From assembly GCA_015057325.1 (NCBI GenBank), contig SVEQ01000014.1, forward strand, positions 1 through 64,000: 64,000 bases of DNA. Reading direction: 5' to 3'. This stretch comes from Lachnospiraceae bacterium. GTDB taxonomy: Bacteria > Bacillota > Clostridia > Lachnospirales > Lachnospiraceae. The notes beneath the pieces are model-generated. The model did not search any database, was not told the DNA's origin, and worked only from the letters and a program-made list of their open reading frames with translations. The stretch's first letter is position 1. Each line of letters opens with the position of its first letter. The position numbers and the translations under genes were made by a program. Shown here piece after piece: positions 1,486-51,189 of the stretch.

Positions 1486-2367
1486 ATGGATAGCGCAATT
1501 ACAGTTAAGGATTTGAATGTTAAGTTGAAAGGTTTTGAATTAAAGGATATCAGTCTTGAGATACCAAGAGGTGTTGTCGTAGGACTTGTCGGAAGGAACG
1601 GTGCCGGCAAGACAACTCTTATCAATACGCTTACGGATGTATATATTCCTGCGGCTGGAAGTATCATTTACGGTGAAGATGAACTTTCAAAGAAACCGGA
1701 AAAAGTAAAGGCAAAAATCGGAGTGTGCTATGACAGCCTGTTCTATCCGCCGATCTATAAGCCGGAAAAGATAGCAAAGATTATTGCACCGTTTTATGAA
1801 GACTTTGATATGGATAAATGGAAATCCTACATGGAGAGATTTAACCTTGACCTTAAGAAGCCTGTCGGACAGTATTCAAAGGGTATGCAGATGAAGTTCA
1901 TGCTGTCGTTGATATTTGCAAGAAACGCAGAGGTTTTAATACTTGATGAGCCGACGGCTGGCTTAGACCCTGCAGCAAGAGCAGAGATTATTGATTTATT
2001 GCAGGAATATATGGTGGATGAGGACAGAACAGTTATATTCTCTACGCATATAACGAGCGACCTTGATAAGATTGCAGATTATATTGTGCTTATGGAGAAC
2101 GGTCAGGTCGTTCTTGTCGAGGAGAAGGATGAACTAATGCTCAACTATGGTGTTGTGCAGGTATCTAAAGAAAAGTTTACATCAGAGATTGAAGGCAAGA
2201 TGATAGGAGTTAAGGAAAAGGAGTTTGGCTACATAGGACTTACAAAGGATGTGGCATTTTTCGAAGGCAGAGACGACGTGAAAGTAAGACGGGCTATCAT
2301 TGAAGATTTGCTTATTTATGAAGATGAGAAGACGGAGACGAATGAGGAGAGTAATCCGTATATTTAA
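1486..2367 (+). CDS. ABC transporter ATP-binding protein (YtrB-like)
   Basis: A 293-residue ATPase that would power the membrane proteins encoded just downstream. Walker A is GRNGAGKTT at about residues 36-44. The signature motif is the degenerate YSKGMQ instead of LSGGQ, which is common in this subfamily. Walker B is VLILDEPTAGLD, and the H-loop lies in FSTHITSDL. The C-terminal ~70 residues are a variable tail. The start follows GAAGGGAG at 1471-1478. The order GntR regulator, ATPase, permeases matches YtrABC-like exporters of Firmicutes. The substrate is unknown. A paralogous ATPase with the same SKGM/SDGM-type signature lies at 19834. Confidence 0.92.
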   Translation: MDSAITVKDLNVKLKGFELKDISLEIPRGVVVGLVGRNGAGKTTLINTLTDVYIPAAGSIIYGEDELSKKPEKVKAKIGVCYDSLFYPPIYKPEKIAKIIAPFYEDFDMDKWKSYMERFNLDLKKPVGQYSKGMQMKFMLSLIFARNAEVLILDEPTAGLDPAARAEIIDLLQEYMVDEDRTVIFSTHITSDLDKIADYIVLMENGQVVLVEEKDELMLNYGVVQVSKEKFTSEIEGKMIGVKEKEFGYIGLTKDVAFFEGRDDVKVRRAIIEDLLIYEDEKTETNEESNPYI

Positions 2368-45131: not shown

Positions 45132-48100
45132 ATGAACAAAGAATTAGAACAGTTAAGAGAAAATGGTTTGTATGACCGACAATTTGAACATGACAACTGC
45201 GGTATCGGTGCAGTTATTCAGATTGACGGAAAGAAGAGCCACCAGTTGGTTGCTGACGCATTGAGCATTGTTGAAAATCTCGAACACAGAGCCGGTAAAG
45301 ATGCCGAAGGTAAGACCGGTGACGGTGTGGGTATTCTTACACAGATTCCTCACAAGTTCTTTGTTCGTAAGATGAAGGAACAGGGAGTAACTCTTCCGGG
45401 AGAGAGAGGATACGGTGTGGGAATGTTCTTCTTCCCACAGAATGATCTTGAGAATCGTCAGGCTAAGAAGATGTTTGAGACAATCGTTGAGAAAGAAGGT
45501 CTTAATATTCTTGGTTGGAGAAAGGTAGATATCAAACCGGAGGTGCTTGGAAGCAAAGCTCTTTCGTGCATGCCGGTTATTATGCAGGTGTTTATTGAAA
45601 GACCTAATAAATATGCTACTGACCTTGACTTTGACAGAAAACTTTACGTTATAAGAAGAGAGTTTGAGCAGAGTAATGTCAATACATATGTGCCTTCATT
45701 ATCATGCAGAACAATAGTATATAAGGGAATGTTTTTGGTTGGTCAGCTTCGTACATTCTTCCTTGATTTAAAGGAGAATGATTTTGAGTCAGCCATTGCA
45801 ATGGTTCATTCAAGATTCTCAACGAATACTAATCCAAGTTGGAATCGTGCTCATCCAAATCGTTTTATGGTACATAACGGTGAGATTAACACAATCAAAG
45901 GTAATGCCGATAAGATGCTTGCACGTGAGGAGACAATGCATACTACTGTACTTTCAGAGGATGATATGACTAAGGTTCTTCCTGTTATTTCTTCAAGCGG
46001 TTCAGATTCTGCAATGCTTGATAACACATTGGAGTTCCTTGTTATGAGTGGTATGGAATTACCTCTTGCAGCAATGATTGCTATTCCTGAACCTTGGGCA
46101 CATAATGATACCCTTACACAGGAGGAGAGAGACTTCTATCAGTATTATGCAACAATGATGGAGCCATGGGATGGCCCTGCTTCAATTCTTTTCTCTGATG
46201 GTGATATCATGGGTGCAATCCTCGATAGAAACGGTCTTCGTCCTTCAAGATACTACGTTATGGACGATGGAAGACTTATTCTTTCGTCAGAGGTTGGTGT
46301 TCTTCCTCTTGATGAGCAGCATGTTGTTAAGAAAGAGAGACTTCATCCTGGAAAAATGCTTCTTGTAGATACAATACAGAACAAGATTTATTCGGATGAG
46401 GAGATAAAAGAGAAATATGCACACAAGGAGCCTTACGGAGAGTGGCTTGACAGCAACTTGTTAAAACTTAAGGATATCAAGATTCCTAATGCAAAGATTC
46501 CTGAATACACAAGTGAGGAAAGAACACGTCTTCAAAAGGCATTTGGCTATACCTACGAGAATTATCATGAGGGAATTCTTAATATGGCATTAAACGGTAT
46601 TGAGCAGATTGGTGCTATGGGTGTTGATACTCCGATAGCTGCATTATCTTCTGAGTACCACCCGCTTTTCTACTATTTTAAACAGTTGTTTGCACAGGTT
46701 ACAAATCCACCGATTGATGCAGAACGTGAGAAGATTGTAACTTCAAGAACTGTATATCTTGGAAAGAACGGTAATTTATTAGAGGAAAAACCTGAGAACT
46801 GTCATGTGTTGACAATTCATAATCCAATACTTACAGACCTTGATCTTTTAAAGATTGAGAACTTAAATCATGAAGGGTTTAAGGTTGCAAAGGTATCAAT
46901 ACTTTATTACAAGTCAACCCCGATGAAGCGTGTTATAGATCATTTATTTGTTGAAGTTGATAAGGCATACAGAGAGGGGGCGAATATTCTTATTCTTTCC
47001 GATAGAGGAGTGGACGAGAACCATGTTGCTATTCCTTCACTCTTGGCGGTGGCAGCGGTACACAGACATCTTGTACAGACAAAGAAATGTACAGCAATGT
47101 CACTTATACTTGAATCAGGAGAGCCAAGAGAGGTTCATCATTTTGCAACATTGCTTGGTTTTGGTGCTTCTGCGGTTAACCCGTATCTTGCACATTCAAC
47201 AATCAAGGAACTTGTAGATAGTGACCTTCTTGATAAGGATTATTACGCAGCAGTAGACGACTATGACAGTGCAATTCTTCAGGGAATAGTTAAGATTGCT
47301 TCTAAAATGGGTATTTCAACTATTCAGTCTTATCAGGGTAGTAAGATATTTGAGGCAATCGGTATTTCAAAAGAGGTTGTTGATGAGTACTTTACAGGAA
47401 CGGTTAGTCGTGTCGGTGGTGTTACTTTAGAGGATATTGCGGATGCTGTTGATAAGCAACACAGTCGTGCTTTTGATCCACTTGGACTTTCTGCAGATAT
47501 GGAGCTTACTGCAGTTGGACGTCATAAAGCAAGAAGTCAGGGTGAGAATCACAGATATAATCCGCAGACAATACATATGCTTCAGCTTGCAACAAGAGAA
47601 GGTAACTATGATAAGTTCACCGAATATACCAAGATGGTTGATGCGGAAAAGACAGGATACCTTAGAAGCCTTATGGACTTTAATTATCCTGCGAACGGCG
47701 TACCTATTGAGGAAGTTGAGAGCGAAGAGGAAATCGTTAAGAGATTTAAGACAGGAGCTATGTCTTATGGTTCTATTTCGGAAGAGGCACATGAAACACT
47801 TGCTATTGCGATGAATCATTTACATGGTAAGTCAAACAGTGGTGAAGGTGGAGAGAGTGATGAAAGAATTGCTTCCGCAGGAACCAAACACGACAGAAGC
47901 TCAGCAATTAAGCAGGTTGCCAGCGGACGTTTTGGTGTAACTAGTAAGTATCTGGTTAGCGCACAGGAAATACAGATTAAAATGGCACAGGGTGCAAAGC
48001 CGGGTGAAGGTGGACATCTTCCGGGAAAGAAGGTTTATCCATGGGTTGCAAAGACAAGACATTCAACACCGGGTGTAAGCCTTATATCACCACCGCCTCA

Positions 48101-49682
48101 TCATGATATTTATTCGATAGAGGATCTTGCACAGCTTATATATGATTTGAAAAATGCTAATAAAAATGCGCGTATTTCCGTAAAACTTGTTTCGGAAGCA
48201 GGTGTAGGAACGGTAGCTGCCGGTGTTGCAAAGGCAGGTGCACAGGTAATCCTTGTGTCAGGTTATGATGGAGGAACAGGAGCAGCACCTTTAAGTTCAA
48301 TCCACAATGCAGGACTTCCTTGGGAGCTCGGTCTTGCAGAGACACATCAGACACTTCTTTCAAACGGACTTAGAAATCAGGTTGTAATTGAAACTGACGG
48401 CAAGCTTATGAGTGGTAGAGATGTTGCAATAGCAGCACTTCTTGGTGCAGAGGAGTTCGGTTTTGCTACTGCACCGCTAGTAACTCTTGGTTGTGTAATG
48501 ATGAGAGTTTGTAACAAGGATACTTGTCCTGTTGGTATTGCAACTCAGAATCCGGAACTTAGAAAACGCTTTGCAGGAAAGCCTGAATACGTTGAGAACT
48601 TCATGATATTTGTCGCAAGACAGCTTCGTGAGTACATGGCACGTCTTGGTGTGAGAAGTATAGATGAGATGGTTGGTCGTACAGACTTGTTAAAGGTTAA
48701 GGAAGGACTTAATGATGCACAGGCAAAAATTGACCTTAGTCAGATTCTTGTTGATGTATCTGATATTGATAGAAGTCTTCAGACATTCCATCCAGAACTT
48801 GCATATGACTTCAAACTTGAAAATACAAAGGACGAGCAGGTATTGCTTAAGAATAAGAGTGTACTTGAAGCAATCAAGAAGGGTAAGGAAAGCAGCCTTG
48901 ATATTGAACTTACCAATATCGATAGAACCTTCGGAACTTTGCTTGGTGCAGAGATTACAAGAAACAATCCGGAAGGTCTTGATGAGGATACGATTACAGT
49001 TAATTGTAAGGGTTCAGGTGGACAGAGTTTTGGAGCATTTATTCCGAAAGGACTTACCATTAAGTTGTCAGGAGACAGTAACGACTACTTTGGTAAAGGT
49101 TTATCCGGAGGAAAGCTTATTGTTCATGCACCTAAAGAAGCAAAGTACAATCCGGAAGAAAATATTATCATCGGTAATGTTGCTCTTTACGGCGCAACTT
49201 CAGGTGAAGCGTATATTGCAGGTATGGCAGGTGAACGTTTCTGTATCCGTAATTCCGGTGTAACAGCTGTTGTTGAAGGTGTCGGAGAGCACGGTTGTGA
49301 GTACATGACAGGTGGTCATGCAGTAATACTGGGTTCTACAGGTAAGAACTTTGCTGCCGGTATGAGTGGCGGTGTTGCTTACGTACTTGATGAGGAGAAT
49401 AATCTGTACAAGAATCTTAATAAGCAGCTTGTAGGAATGGAAAAAGTTGAACTTAAGAATGACAAGGAAGAACTTAGAAAGATAATAGAGAACCATGTAA
49501 AATATACAGGTTCTAAGAAGGGTCAGAAAATCCTTGATAATTTTGATGAGTATATCGGTAAGTTCAAGAAGATAATACCTACAGATTATAAAGAAATGTT
49601 AAGACTTACAGCGCGTAACGAAGAGCAGGGTATGGATAGAGAGCAGGCACAGATTGAAGCATTCACGGAACTCGTTGGATAA
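45132..49682 (+). CDS. gltB: glutamate synthase large subunit
   Basis: A 1516-residue glutamine:2-oxoglutarate aminotransferase, making two glutamates from glutamine and 2-oxoglutarate. The N-terminal class II amidotransferase has nucleophile C23 in DNCGIG after a short propeptide. The central and FMN-binding domains contain EGGESDERIA, then KPGEGGHLPGKKV and SGYDGGTGAAPLSS. The 3Fe-4S cysteines are C1121, C1127 and C1132. The C-terminal part is the beta-helix domain rich in GxxxG turns. Full length for the family. The small subunit gltD, which supplies electrons from NADPH, is not next to it. The start follows AGGAGGAG, and the stop TAA forms the first bases of the inverted repeat at 49680. 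Confidence 0.96.
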   Translation: MNKELEQLRENGLYDRQFEHDNCGIGAVIQIDGKKSHQLVADALSIVENLEHRAGKDAEGKTGDGVGILTQIPHKFFVRKMKEQGVTLPGERGYGVGMFFFPQNDLENRQAKKMFETIVEKEGLNILGWRKVDIKPEVLGSKALSCMPVIMQVFIERPNKYATDLDFDRKLYVIRREFEQSNVNTYVPSLSCRTIVYKGMFLVGQLRTFFLDLKENDFESAIAMVHSRFSTNTNPSWNRAHPNRFMVHNGEINTIKGNADKMLAREETMHTTVLSEDDMTKVLPVISSSGSDSAMLDNTLEFLVMSGMELPLAAMIAIPEPWAHNDTLTQEERDFYQYYATMMEPWDGPASILFSDGDIMGAILDRNGLRPSRYYVMDDGRLILSSEVGVLPLDEQHVVKKERLHPGKMLLVDTIQNKIYSDEEIKEKYAHKEPYGEWLDSNLLKLKDIKIPNAKIPEYTSEERTRLQKAFGYTYENYHEGILNMALNGIEQIGAMGVDTPIAALSSEYHPLFYYFKQLFAQVTNPPIDAEREKIVTSRTVYLGKNGNLLEEKPENCHVLTIHNPILTDLDLLKIENLNHEGFKVAKVSILYYKSTPMKRVIDHLFVEVDKAYREGANILILSDRGVDENHVAIPSLLAVAAVHRHLVQTKKCTAMSLILESGEPREVHHFATLLGFGASAVNPYLAHSTIKELVDSDLLDKDYYAAVDDYDSAILQGIVKIASKMGISTIQSYQGSKIFEAIGISKEVVDEYFTGTVSRVGGVTLEDIADAVDKQHSRAFDPLGLSADMELTAVGRHKARSQGENHRYNPQTIHMLQLATREGNYDKFTEYTKMVDAEKTGYLRSLMDFNYPANGVPIEEVESEEEIVKRFKTGAMSYGSISEEAHETLAIAMNHLHGKSNSGEGGESDERIASAGTKHDRSSAIKQVASGRFGVTSKYLVSAQEIQIKMAQGAKPGEGGHLPGKKVYPWVAKTRHSTPGVSLISPPPHHDIYSIEDLAQLIYDLKNANKNARISVKLVSEAGVGTVAAGVAKAGAQVILVSGYDGGTGAAPLSSIHNAGLPWELGLAETHQTLLSNGLRNQVVIETDGKLMSGRDVAIAALLGAEEFGFATAPLVTLGCVMMRVCNKDTCPVGIATQNPELRKRFAGKPEYVENFMIFVARQLREYMARLGVRSIDEMVGRTDLLKVKEGLNDAQAKIDLSQILVDVSDIDRSLQTFHPELAYDFKLENTKDEQVLLKNKSVLEAIKKGKESSLDIELTNIDRTFGTLLGAEITRNNPEGLDEDTITVNCKGSGGQSFGAFIPKGLTIKLSGDSNDYFGKGLSGGKLIVHAPKEAKYNPEENIIIGNVALYGATSGEAYIAGMAGERFCIRNSGVTAVVEGVGEHGCEYMTGGHAVILGSTGKNFAAGMSGGVAYVLDEENNLYKNLNKQLVGMEKVELKNDKEELRKIIENHVKYTGSKKGQKILDNFDEYIGKFKKIIPTDYKEMLRLTARNEEQGMDREQAQIEAFTELVG

Positions 49683-49993
49683 ATTGCTGTTTAATGCACT
49701 TTTATTCTTAACGGACGCGTATAGATTATCAGATGTATGCATATCCTGTGTCAGAATGTCCGGTGCTAAGAGGTTGTAGGTATGCCGACAACACTTTCTT
49801 ATAATACGCGACCGGCTATCAATTCGCCATCGTGGCTCAATGATGCCTTGCTCGCCATCCATGGCTCGCATCGCTATGTTAATCACGGCATACCAACAAC
49901 CTCTAAACACCTACCATATTCCACAGGATATTGCACACACAGATAATCTCACGCTGTTTCGTTATGTACGAAAGTGCATCAAATCAGCCAACA
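49680..49993. repeat. fold-back element 1 (imperfect ~310-bp inverted repeat)
   Basis: The sequence folds back on itself along most of its length. ATGCACTTT (49694-49702) pairs with AAAGTGCAT (49971-49979), GATTATC (49724-49730) with GATAATC (49942-49948), ATATCCTGTG (49741-49750) with CACAGGATAT (49922-49931), and a 19-nt arm with one A-A mismatch (49769-49787 with 49886-49904). The 98-base apical region holds smaller stems. The left end, TAAATTGCTGTTTA (49680-49693), is also found inverted at 50336-50349. No credible gene is present. Confidence 0.85.
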
Positions 49994-50040
49994 CGTAACG
50001 TTCGCGATGATGCGAGCCGTTTACGGCGAGTCGCGTGCGT

Positions 50041-50349
50041 CAGCTGTTTGGGTACATTTTGAATTAACAGACAGCATACTTGGTTTTAATGTATTATGAT
50101 TCATGTTTGACATTTGGTAGGATATTAGAGTTACTTGGTATTACGATGAATATACAGTGGCTGCCGAACATGGATGTTCGGCATGTTCCTTTGAGACAGG
50201 ATGTCGAATAGGAACAGTGCCGCGTAATATAAGAAAACTTTTCCGTAATACCTAGAAACTCTTATATCCGAACAATCAGGCATACATGAACATAATACAT
50301 TTAAAAATAAGTATGCGTCCGTTTTAAAATGTAACTAAACAGCAATTTA
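50041..50349. repeat. fold-back element 2 (imperfect ~305-bp inverted repeat)
   Basis: Nested stems: GCTGTTT (50043-50049)/AAACAGC (50337-50343), TACATTTT (50053-50060)/AAAATGTA (50326-50333), GCATACTT (50074-50081)/AAGTATGC (50309-50316), an 18-bp stem with one bulged A (50088-50106 with 50284-50301) and a 26-bp arm with three mismatches (50120-50145 with 50244-50269). Inside are two compact hairpins, GCCGAACA/TGTTCGGC (50163-50182) and TGTTCCT/AGGAACA (50184-50216). The terminal ~40 bases resemble the start of element 1, so the elements are related. Spacer 49994-50040 is GC-rich, with a CGCGA/TCGCG stem. Confidence 0.85.
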
Positions 50350-51189
50350 CAAGATTCGTCGCACATGTCGATTGACATGACAGCACATATTAACCGCAAC
50401 CGGAAGTCCGGCAATATGTGTTGGATATGTTTCGATGTTAACAGCAAGAGCCGTTGTTCTTCCACCAAGTCCTCCGGGACCGATTCCCAAAGAATTAATC
50501 TTTGCAAGCATTTCTTCCTCTATTTCTTTGATATGAGGAAGTTCTGAATGCTCATTAAGGTTACGTGTAAGTGCTTTTTTGGCCAATATAGCGGCTTTCT
50601 CAAAATCGCCACCGATTCCAACACCTACCACTACCGGCGGACATGCATTAGGTCCTGCCTCACGAACGGTATTAAGAATTGCTTCCTTAACACCATCCAC
50701 TCCATCCGCAGGTTTTAACATGAATAATCTGCTCATGTTCTCTGAACCAAAACCTTTAGGAGCAATAAGTATTTCTAACTTATCTCCGGGTACAATATCG
50801 TAGTGAATTATAGCAGGTGTATTATCCTTGGTATTCTCTCTAAGCAAAGGATCACCGACAACCGACTTACGCAAATAGCCTTCTGTATAACCCTGTCTTA
50901 CACCTTCATTTATAGCATCTGTAAGATTGGCTCCTTCTATATGAAGATCCTGTCCAATCTTAACAAAGAACACAGCCATTCCGGTATCCTGACAAATAGG
51001 AATTCCCTCCTTATCGGCAATGTCCATATTTTCACATAACTGTGAAAGAATCTTGCGTCCAAGCTCACCTTCCTCTTCCTGTGCTCCTTTTTCAATTGCA
51101 CCCTTAACATCATCCGAAAGACGAAGGTTAGCTTCTATACACATTTGTTTTACGTTATCTGTTATTATGTCTGTATGAATTGTTCTCAT
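50347..51189 (-). CDS. class I fumarate hydratase, alpha subunit
   Basis: A 280-residue [4Fe-4S] hydro-lyase subunit converting fumarate to malate, or tartrate to oxaloacetate in close relatives. The ATG at 51189 overlaps the kinase stop by four bases (ATGA). Cluster cysteines are visible in PICQDTGMAVFF, GPNACPPVVVGVGIGG and NMCCHVNRH. Also typical are GLGGRTTALAV and THIAGLPVAVN. Two-subunit class I enzymes need a beta subunit, normally the next gene; here the reading ends at 50347 and fold-back element 2 follows instead. The stop TAA is the first triplet of the inverted repeat TAAATTGCTGTTTA. TtdA is the alternative identity. Confidence 0.9.
   Translation of the reverse strand: MRTIHTDIITDNVKQMCIEANLRLSDDVKGAIEKGAQEEEGELGRKILSQLCENMDIADKEGIPICQDTGMAVFFVKIGQDLHIEGANLTDAINEGVRQGYTEGYLRKSVVGDPLLRENTKDNTPAIIHYDIVPGDKLEILIAPKGFGSENMSRLFMLKPADGVDGVKEAILNTVREAGPNACPPVVVGVGIGGDFEKAAILAKKALTRNLNEHSELPHIKEIEEEMLAKINSLGIGPGGLGGRTTALAVNIETYPTHIAGLPVAVNMCCHVNRHVRRIL

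What the first reader, a model, noticed from the sequence alone, without database searches (positions are those of the whole stretch)
49680..50349. Two related large fold-back elements fill a 670-bp gap and are bounded by a perfect 14-bp inverted repeat
Seen directly: TAAATTGCTGTTTA at 49680-49693 and its exact reverse complement at 50336-50349, with similarity continuing about 40 bases inward at each end. Inside are two tandem palindromic units (49680-49993 and 50041-50349), each foldable along nearly its whole length, with related outer ends but different inner hairpins. The right end of unit 1 (49969-49991) is again an inverted, diverged copy of the left end. There is no transposase or credible gene. 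This fits a MITE-like or fold-back mobile element family, or a large structured RNA, possibly a bidirectional terminator. I do not recognise it as a described family.
Basis: partly seen in the sequence, partly recalled or inferred. Interest (0 to 1): 0.82.

Follow-up and report, generated by a model that had tools for sequence, protein, structure and literature searches.

The report
Dispersed fold-back element carrying TwoAYGGAY hairpins
A 670-base stretch between two genes of a bacterium that appears to be a Lachnospiraceae is one of roughly thirty copies of a gene-less, hairpin-forming repeat whose core is a catalogued but unexplained RNA motif, and across species its hairpins change as if DNA copied one arm onto the other rather than as if RNA were under selection.

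Summary
In detail: 49680-50349 is bounded by a perfect 14-bp inverted repeat and holds two large hairpins. Both tips are Rfam RF01731, TwoAYGGAY RNA, pointing outward: a described motif of unknown function. It is repeated: 25 RF01731 hits here, 65 end-pattern matches against 4 for a control, RF01731 in 65 of 397 family genomes. It inserts: five of 17 sites are contiguous without it in congeners; two of 13 sibling-genome ends mapped to unselected contigs have no element here. All 15 flanks whose longest ORF (160 codons or more) converges on the element stop within 4 nt of it or 11 nt inside it. No transposase or target duplication was found. Stem covariation is very strong, yet across genera G-U is hardly commoner than A-C (46:35), against 440:9 in large SRP RNA; own-genome copies lean to G-U (138:57). 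My reading: a non-autonomous fold-back element whose stems are re-paired by template switching in DNA. A CsrA link (GGA in both loops of 61 of 73 cores) is possible but not separable from flagella.

The parts
49680..50349 (.). whole element (copy C16 of the family)
   Evidence: perfect terminal inverted repeat; related places across the genome
49680..49693 (+). left terminal inverted repeat; its first TAA (49680-49682) is the gltB stop codon
   Evidence: core TTGCTGTTTA shared by copies
50336..50349 (-). right terminal inverted repeat; 50347-50349 read on the - strand is the stop codon of the fumarase alpha-type gene
49680..49993 (.). unit 1, large hairpin
50041..50349 (.). unit 2, large hairpin
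49755..49918 (-). TwoAYGGAY core of unit 1 (RF01731, 104.8 bits, gathering 43)
50113..50276 (+). TwoAYGGAY core of unit 2 (RF01731, 98.3 bits)
49855..49864 (-). first hairpin loop of unit 1 with GGA (CCATGGATGG on the - strand)
   Evidence: sequence; alignment
49827..49835 (-). second hairpin loop of unit 1, CCACGATGG on the - strand, without GGA
   Evidence: sequence; alignment
50168..50177 (+). first hairpin loop of unit 2, ACATGGATGT
   Evidence: sequence; loop census
50196..50204 (+). second hairpin loop of unit 2, ACAGGATGT
   Evidence: sequence; loop census
49994..50040 (.). spacer between the units
   Evidence: none of the six promoter-like sites found in 49600-50450 (2.5 expected, sd 1.2) lies in it

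Best explanation
The block is one copy of a non-autonomous, dispersed fold-back (MITE-like) DNA element. Here it is made of two head-to-head palindromic units whose tips are TwoAYGGAY motifs, enclosed by a terminal inverted repeat with core TTGCTGTTTA. Shown: many copies, common ends, no ORF in this copy, occupied and empty sites, ends abutting stop codons in this genome, and pairing statistics. Inferred: copies were spread by an unidentified trans-acting transposase or recombinase without target duplication; once in place the palindrome is edited by DNA replication template switching, which copies one arm onto the other (Watson-Crick pairs restored, no G-U excess across genera) and inverts inner segments, while recombination between copies rearranges the flanking operons.
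For: Copies: 25 RF01731 hits; 96 BLAST matches to the block, many of them overlapping or inverted pieces of one copy; 65 end-pattern matches against 4 for the control pattern. Insertion: 5 of 17 joined-flank sites are contiguous without the element in a congener (the fifth, C15_67429, aligns only roughly). Of 40 G405 ends, 27 mapped to the G000 sequence held: 16 have an element end at the same nucleotide, 8 within about 20 nt, 1 aligns poorly, 2 have none; on the contigs not chosen for holding a copy (C7, C9, C12) it is 11 occupied, 2 empty. gltB is followed directly by gltD in G411, G410 and G401 (gltD named for G411); in G000 and G405 both genes border elements and are apart. Siting: 15 of 15 flanks with a longest ORF of at least 160 codons converging on the element end 0-4 nt outside (12) or 11 nt inside it (3); 12 flanks with such an ORF leaving it start 19-31 nt (8) or 74-95 nt (4) away; 7 of 34 flanks had none. 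Pairing: 37 of 39 pairs have two-sided changes, yet G-U 46: A-C 35 in 73 cores (41: 50 on the structure derived from the other strand) and the motif strand folds better in 43 of 73 (p 0.12), against 440: 9 and 30 of 30 for 30 large SRP RNAs and 15: 2 and 10 of 12 for 12 tRNAs; arms of 67 loci of other genera G-T 125: A-C 133, other mismatches 596. Of 16 strictly typed shared junctions, 8 carry the opposite element end, as inversion would give. Template switching is described as fixing hairpin pairing (PMC8794818, abstract and passages) and as homogenising arms and inverting spacers (PMC8604942, passages).
Against: No transposase was identified; no target duplication is visible. The 25 own-genome hits show G-T 138: A-C 57 (p 6e-9 if they were independent, which they are not) and 11 related unit-1 copies of G000 and G405 give 27: 11: both lean to RNA-type wobble on the TwoAYGGAY strand. 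Loop and junction letters are strand-specific and conserved (18 of the 22 columns at 90% or more are unpaired, although mean conservation is the same, 0.62-0.63, for paired and unpaired columns), which template switching alone does not explain. Genomes are drafts broken at the element, so flips and partner changes may partly be assembly errors; each of the two empty sites rests on one flank. The 160-codon threshold was set after seeing the data, most ORFs were not verified as genes, and no random-position control was run. In other genera abutment is loose (13 of 76 converging ends within 10 nt).
Confidence: 0.6

Rival explanations
1. TwoAYGGAY is a functional RNA that binds CsrA: each copy offers GGA hairpin loops, so the copies together act as a sponge or place CsrA sites in transcripts. 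The mobile element is only the vehicle.
For: GGA in loop 1 of 66, loop 2 of 65 and both of 61 of 73 cores; CsrA-motif matches proposed earlier for this family (PMC4333381, passages); CsrA in 62 of 65 RF01731-positive genomes against 148 of 332 others; a csrA gene in this genome; G-T excess in own-genome copies.
Against: FliF shows the same association (63 of 65 against 146 of 332) and only 13 genomes have one without the other, so no independent CsrA signal remains; two of the three CsrA-lacking positives have FliF. No G-U excess across genera. One of the four loops in the window lacks GGA.
Confidence: 0.25
2. It is a cis-regulatory leader (Rfam's type), acting on the gene downstream of the motif strand.
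For: Rfam lists RF01731 as Cis-reg; in this genome 8 flanks have a start codon 19-31 nt from the element.
Against: The discoverers' table rates it probably not cis-regulatory (PMC2864571, one table row). Of 26 assigned neighbours on the 3' side of the motif in other genera, 18 face it and 8 run away from it.
Confidence: 0.08
3. It is a REP/BIME-like repeat moved by a Y1 (RAYT-type) transposase.
For: Oppositely oriented palindromes in intergenic space, seen as non-autonomous elements in PMC2817692 (passages).
Against: No Y1_Tnp match in this genome; 31 of 65 positive genomes have one against 187 of 332 others (p 0.22).
Confidence: 0.05
4. It is an intrinsic bidirectional terminator region of ordinary local origin.
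For: Lies between converging genes in the window.
Against: Dispersed copies, six of 17 between same-direction ORFs, and empty sites; one terminator-like site against 0.6 expected.
Confidence: 0.03

Closest known systems
TwoAYGGAY RNA motif (Rfam RF01731; Weinberg et al. 2010, PMC2864571)
   Same: Both hairpin tips match the whole 168-position model well above threshold; GGA-type loops.
   Different: Rfam models a 168-position RNA; here it is the tip of longer palindromes (153-675 bp in 66 loci of other genera, 64 of them 213-430), paired head to head in this copy and enclosed by inverted ends in a dispersed repeat. Of PMC2864571 I saw one table row.
MITEs / fold-back elements of bacteria
   Same: Short, no ORF in this copy, multi-copy, terminal inverted repeats, intergenic (definition recalled).
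   Different: No target duplication seen and no autonomous partner found; tight abutment on stop codons in this genome.
REP/BIME elements with RAYT transposases (PMC2817692, passages)
   Same: Inverted pairs of palindromes in intergenic space, non-autonomous.
   Different: Units of about 300 bp rather than short palindromes; no Y1 transposase in the genome.
Template-switch evolution of hairpins (PMC8794818, abstract and passages; PMC8604942, passages)
   Same: Arm homogenisation and spacer inversion would give the pairing and end-type pattern seen here.
   Different: Those works concern RNA genes and yeast coding repeats, not a mobile family.

Membership tests
TwoAYGGAY RNA (RF01731) | covariance-model score above the gathering threshold | tested here: met
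   104.8 and 98.3 bits, threshold 43
TwoAYGGAY RNA (RF01731) | two GGA-type hairpin loops | tested here: inconclusive
   unit 2 has both; the second loop of unit 1 reads CGA instead; 61 of 73 cores have both
TwoAYGGAY RNA (RF01731) | acts as an RNA (transcribed, selected on one strand) | tested here: inconclusive
   no strand preference in folding and no G-U excess across genera, a G-T lean among own copies, conserved strand-specific loops; transcription not testable
MITE / fold-back element | terminal inverted repeats shared by copies | tested here: met
MITE / fold-back element | short, no transposase gene | tested here: met
   17 copies with both ends, cores 385-829 bp; no ORF of 60 aa or more wholly inside this copy; the other copies were not ORF-scanned one by one
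MITE / fold-back element | insertion shown by empty sites | tested here: met
MITE / fold-back element | target-site duplication | tested here: not met
   none visible in the flanks of the 17 copies; some transposase classes make none (recalled)
MITE / fold-back element | autonomous relative with the same ends | tested here: inconclusive
   end-pattern matches are close pairs, lie near contig ends, or are isolated two-mismatch matches (read by eye); contig breaks could hide an autonomous copy
REP/BIME | RAYT/Y1 transposase in the genome | tested here: not met
   0 Y1_Tnp matches in this genome

The most novel reading that the evidence does not exclude
A self-spreading DNA palindrome that carries a paired CsrA-binding hairpin and inserts next to stop codons, so that a mobile repeat wires many operons into, or titrates, a global RNA regulator, while its strong 'RNA' covariation is produced by DNA template switching.
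Probability: 0.18. Interest if true: 0.88.

Novelty: new variant of a known kind. Interest (0 to 1): 0.6.

Why it matters
It gives an unexplained Rfam family a genomic identity (the tip of a dispersed fold-back element) and offers a plain test, G-U against A-C counts on both strands, that can separate covariation made by DNA palindrome editing from covariation made by RNA selection. If it holds for other repeat-borne motifs, some catalogued 'structured RNAs' with strong covariation may be DNA elements. It also points to a repeat that, in this genome, abuts stop codons and marks operon break points.

Tried and rejected
Linked mobilising gene: ORFs of 70 codons or more in 69 loci of other genera and in own and G405 loci were clustered; the largest cluster spans 5 genomes and the rest 3 or fewer, and the clusters were not annotated, so a rare or unlinked enzyme is not excluded. 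The 221-aa ORF between two palindromes in L112 looks like a membrane passenger protein, by eye only. Y1 transposase: no association and none here. CsrA co-occurrence looked striking until the FliF control matched it. Plasmid and phage collections: no match. Literature: searches for TwoAYGGAY, CsrA with FliW, Clostridi and sRNA, MITE with Lachnospiraceae, CsrA sponge repeats, intergenic palindromes (12 of 636 listed), template switching (12 of 25 listed), MITE with Clostridi and covariation with DNA hairpins (none) showed, among the titles and abstracts listed, no paper tying this motif to a mobile element; 7 papers hold the name, 5 were listed, and passages of those 5 were read. Orientation counts ignored the motif strand and were redone. 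One search's tRNA count failed to parse and was replaced. Rows dropped: the copy at C7:276881 (right end not recognisable) and copies cut by contig ends were left out of the 17; L112 gave no palindrome, and L099 and L114 are not; nine of 25 shared ends were left untyped by the strict rule; by alignment score the tally would lean to flips, but I do not count it. The stated confidence went from 0.62 to 0.60 on checking, because only 13 of the 27 mapped ends lie on contigs not chosen for holding a copy.
Full report
OBSERVATION. The block 49680-50349 fills the gap between gltB (45132-49682, +) and a fumarase alpha-type gene (51204-50347, -), named with NCBIfam. The perfect 14-bp inverted repeat and the two internal hairpins are as described, and the fold is far beyond chance (z -17.8 against 20 shuffles). 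The outermost TAA at each end is the stop codon of the neighbouring gene.

WHAT IT CONTAINS. Rfam 15 gives two hits above threshold in the whole window, both RF01731 TwoAYGGAY: 49755-49918 on the - strand (104.8 bits) and 50113-50276 on the + strand (98.3 bits), gathering score 43. They point outward. What I saw in print: a table row rating it probably an RNA and probably not cis-regulatory (PMC2864571), a proposal that its two loops fit the CsrA-binding motif (PMC4333381, passages), structure updates (PMC11701678; PMC7657543) and a note on loop stability (PMC11661157). None of these passages mentions repeats or mobility.

IT IS A DISPERSED REPEAT. In this genome (3.05 Mb, 24 contigs) there are 25 RF01731 hits and 96 BLAST matches to the block, which include overlapping and inverted pieces of the same copies; besides the window copy, four near-full-length copies match at 85-93%. 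A 21-base end pattern with up to 2 mismatches occurs 65 times against 4 for the control, which suggests roughly thirty copies. I extracted 17 copies with both ends: cores 385-829 bp, ends TTGCTG (or a one-letter variant) to AGCAA, no shared duplication. Many contigs end inside copies. Plasmids and phages: no match.

IT INSERTS AND REARRANGES. Joined flanks of the 17 sites were searched in 26 genomes of the genus (listing cut). Five sites are contiguous without the element, one each in G401, G188, G407, G411 and G402, at a divergence too high to fix the exact footprint; the G402 case aligns only roughly. Of 40 distinct G405 ends, 27 mapped to the G000 sequence I held: 16 have an element end at the same nucleotide, 8 within about 20 nt, 1 aligns poorly, and 2 have none (G000 C12:77516 and C12:33948, each judged from one flank). 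Part of the sequence held had been chosen because it contains copies; on contigs C7, C9 and C12, which were taken whole, the count is 11 occupied and 2 empty. Where both ends could be typed strictly (16 junctions), 8 carry the same end and 8 the opposite end; 9 were left untyped. gltB is directly followed by gltD in G411, G410 and G401; in G402 it is followed by another gene without an element, and the G416 contig ends there (gltD named by NCBIfam in G411). In G000 gltB is followed by the element and fumarase alpha, in G405 by an element and leuD; gltD lies elsewhere in both, with an element end upstream. Fumarase alpha is followed by the beta subunit in G188 (named) and by a similar ORF in G398, G420 and G408, but by an element in G000 and G405, then gltB or panB. 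These are draft assemblies broken at the repeat, so some of these joins could be errors.

SITING. For the 34 flanks of the 17 copies I took the longest ORF of each (fetched flanks are mostly about 600 bases, ORFs mostly not verified as genes, threshold chosen after seeing the list). In 15 it converges on the element and has at least 160 codons: 12 stop 0-4 nt outside it and 3 read 11 nt in, to a stop that the element supplies. In 12 it leaves the element: 8 start 19-31 nt away, 4 start 74-95 nt away. The remaining 7 flanks had no such ORF. In relatives without the element gltB ends with a stop codon at the same place, so that stop looks native. Selection against gene damage in tight operon gaps explains part of this; a target preference may add to it; no random-position control was run. 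In other genera the pattern is looser: 13 of 76 converging ends within 10 nt of the palindrome edge. Motif orientation does not suit a leader: of 26 assigned neighbours on the 3' side, 18 face the motif and 8 run away from it.

DNA-TYPE COVARIATION. In 31 cores from 30 genomes, 37 of 39 pairs show changes on both sides, and covariation exceeds all 500 shuffles and all slid controls. Yet pairs are Watson-Crick 1049, G-U 26, A-C 34, other 84. With 73 cores: G-U 46, A-C 35, other 205 on the motif strand's structure; G-U 41, A-C 50 on the structure derived from the other strand; the motif strand folds better than its complement in 43 of 73 (p 0.12). Controls run the same way: 30 large SRP RNAs gave G-U 440, A-C 9, and 30 of 30; 12 tRNAs gave 15, 2, and 10 of 12. 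Counting mismatches between the two arms of each hairpin, outer arms included, 67 loci from other genera gave G-T 125, A-C 133, other 596. Against this, the 25 own-genome hits gave 138 to 57 and 11 unit-1 copies of G000 and G405 gave 27 to 11; these are related copies of a few lineages, but they lean the RNA way. Palindromes in other genera reach beyond the Rfam model (153-675 bp in 66 loci, 64 of them 213-430), with differing outer sequences, some shared between genera. Strand-symmetric, Watson-Crick-only change is what copying of one arm onto the other in DNA would give; such template switching has been inferred for RNA hairpins (PMC8794818, abstract and passages) and, with spacer inversion, for yeast repeats (PMC8604942, passages).

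WHAT REMAINS FOR RNA. Of the 22 alignment columns conserved at 90% or more, 18 are unpaired, although mean conservation of paired and unpaired columns is equal; GGA is present in loop 1 of 66, loop 2 of 65 and both of 61 of 73 cores. CsrA co-occurs (62 of 65 against 148 of 332), but so does FliF (63 of 65 against 146 of 332), and only 13 genomes separate the two. CsrA binding is therefore open.

MECHANISM, STEP BY STEP. Shown: repeat family, ends, occupied and empty sites, siting, pairing statistics. Inferred: mobilisation in trans by an unknown enzyme without target duplication; arm homogenisation and inversion by template switching; operon break-up by recombination between copies. Not shown: transcription, protein binding, effect on neighbours.

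VERDICT. A real, dispersed fold-back element family whose core is a known RNA motif; a new variant of a known kind. The sharpest point for a specialist is that an Rfam family with very strong covariation shows, across genera, no RNA-type wobble tolerance and sits in a mobile palindrome.

Noticed in passing
G000 C16:64490-64703 (just beyond the window's right end): The contig that holds the window ends inside another copy of the element.
   Followed up: partly
L112:772-1437 (G385): A 221-aa membrane-protein-like ORF (by eye) lies between two inverted TwoAYGGAY palindromes, like a passenger gene in a composite element.
   Followed up: partly
L110:1143-1310 (-) and 1501-1666 (+); G008:C47; G365:C152: Head-to-head (outward-pointing) TwoAYGGAY pairs occur in other genera too.
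   Followed up: partly
L098, L118, L122, L178, L182, L187, L204 palindrome ends: Several genera share a palindrome end like GATTCGGGTGTCAAAAGG or part of it, unlike the TTGCTGTTTA end found here.
   Followed up: no
397 family genomes: RF01731 is found in 61 of 203 genomes with both CsrA and FliF but in 1 of 181 with neither.
   Followed up: partly
G000 copies of about 737 bp (e.g. C12:6029-6765): A second element type has a unit-2-like segment inverted relative to the ends, a mosaic of the 670-bp type.
   Followed up: partly
window 49600-50450: Six promoter-like sites against 2.5 (sd 1.2) expected by shuffling; not examined in other copies.
   Followed up: no
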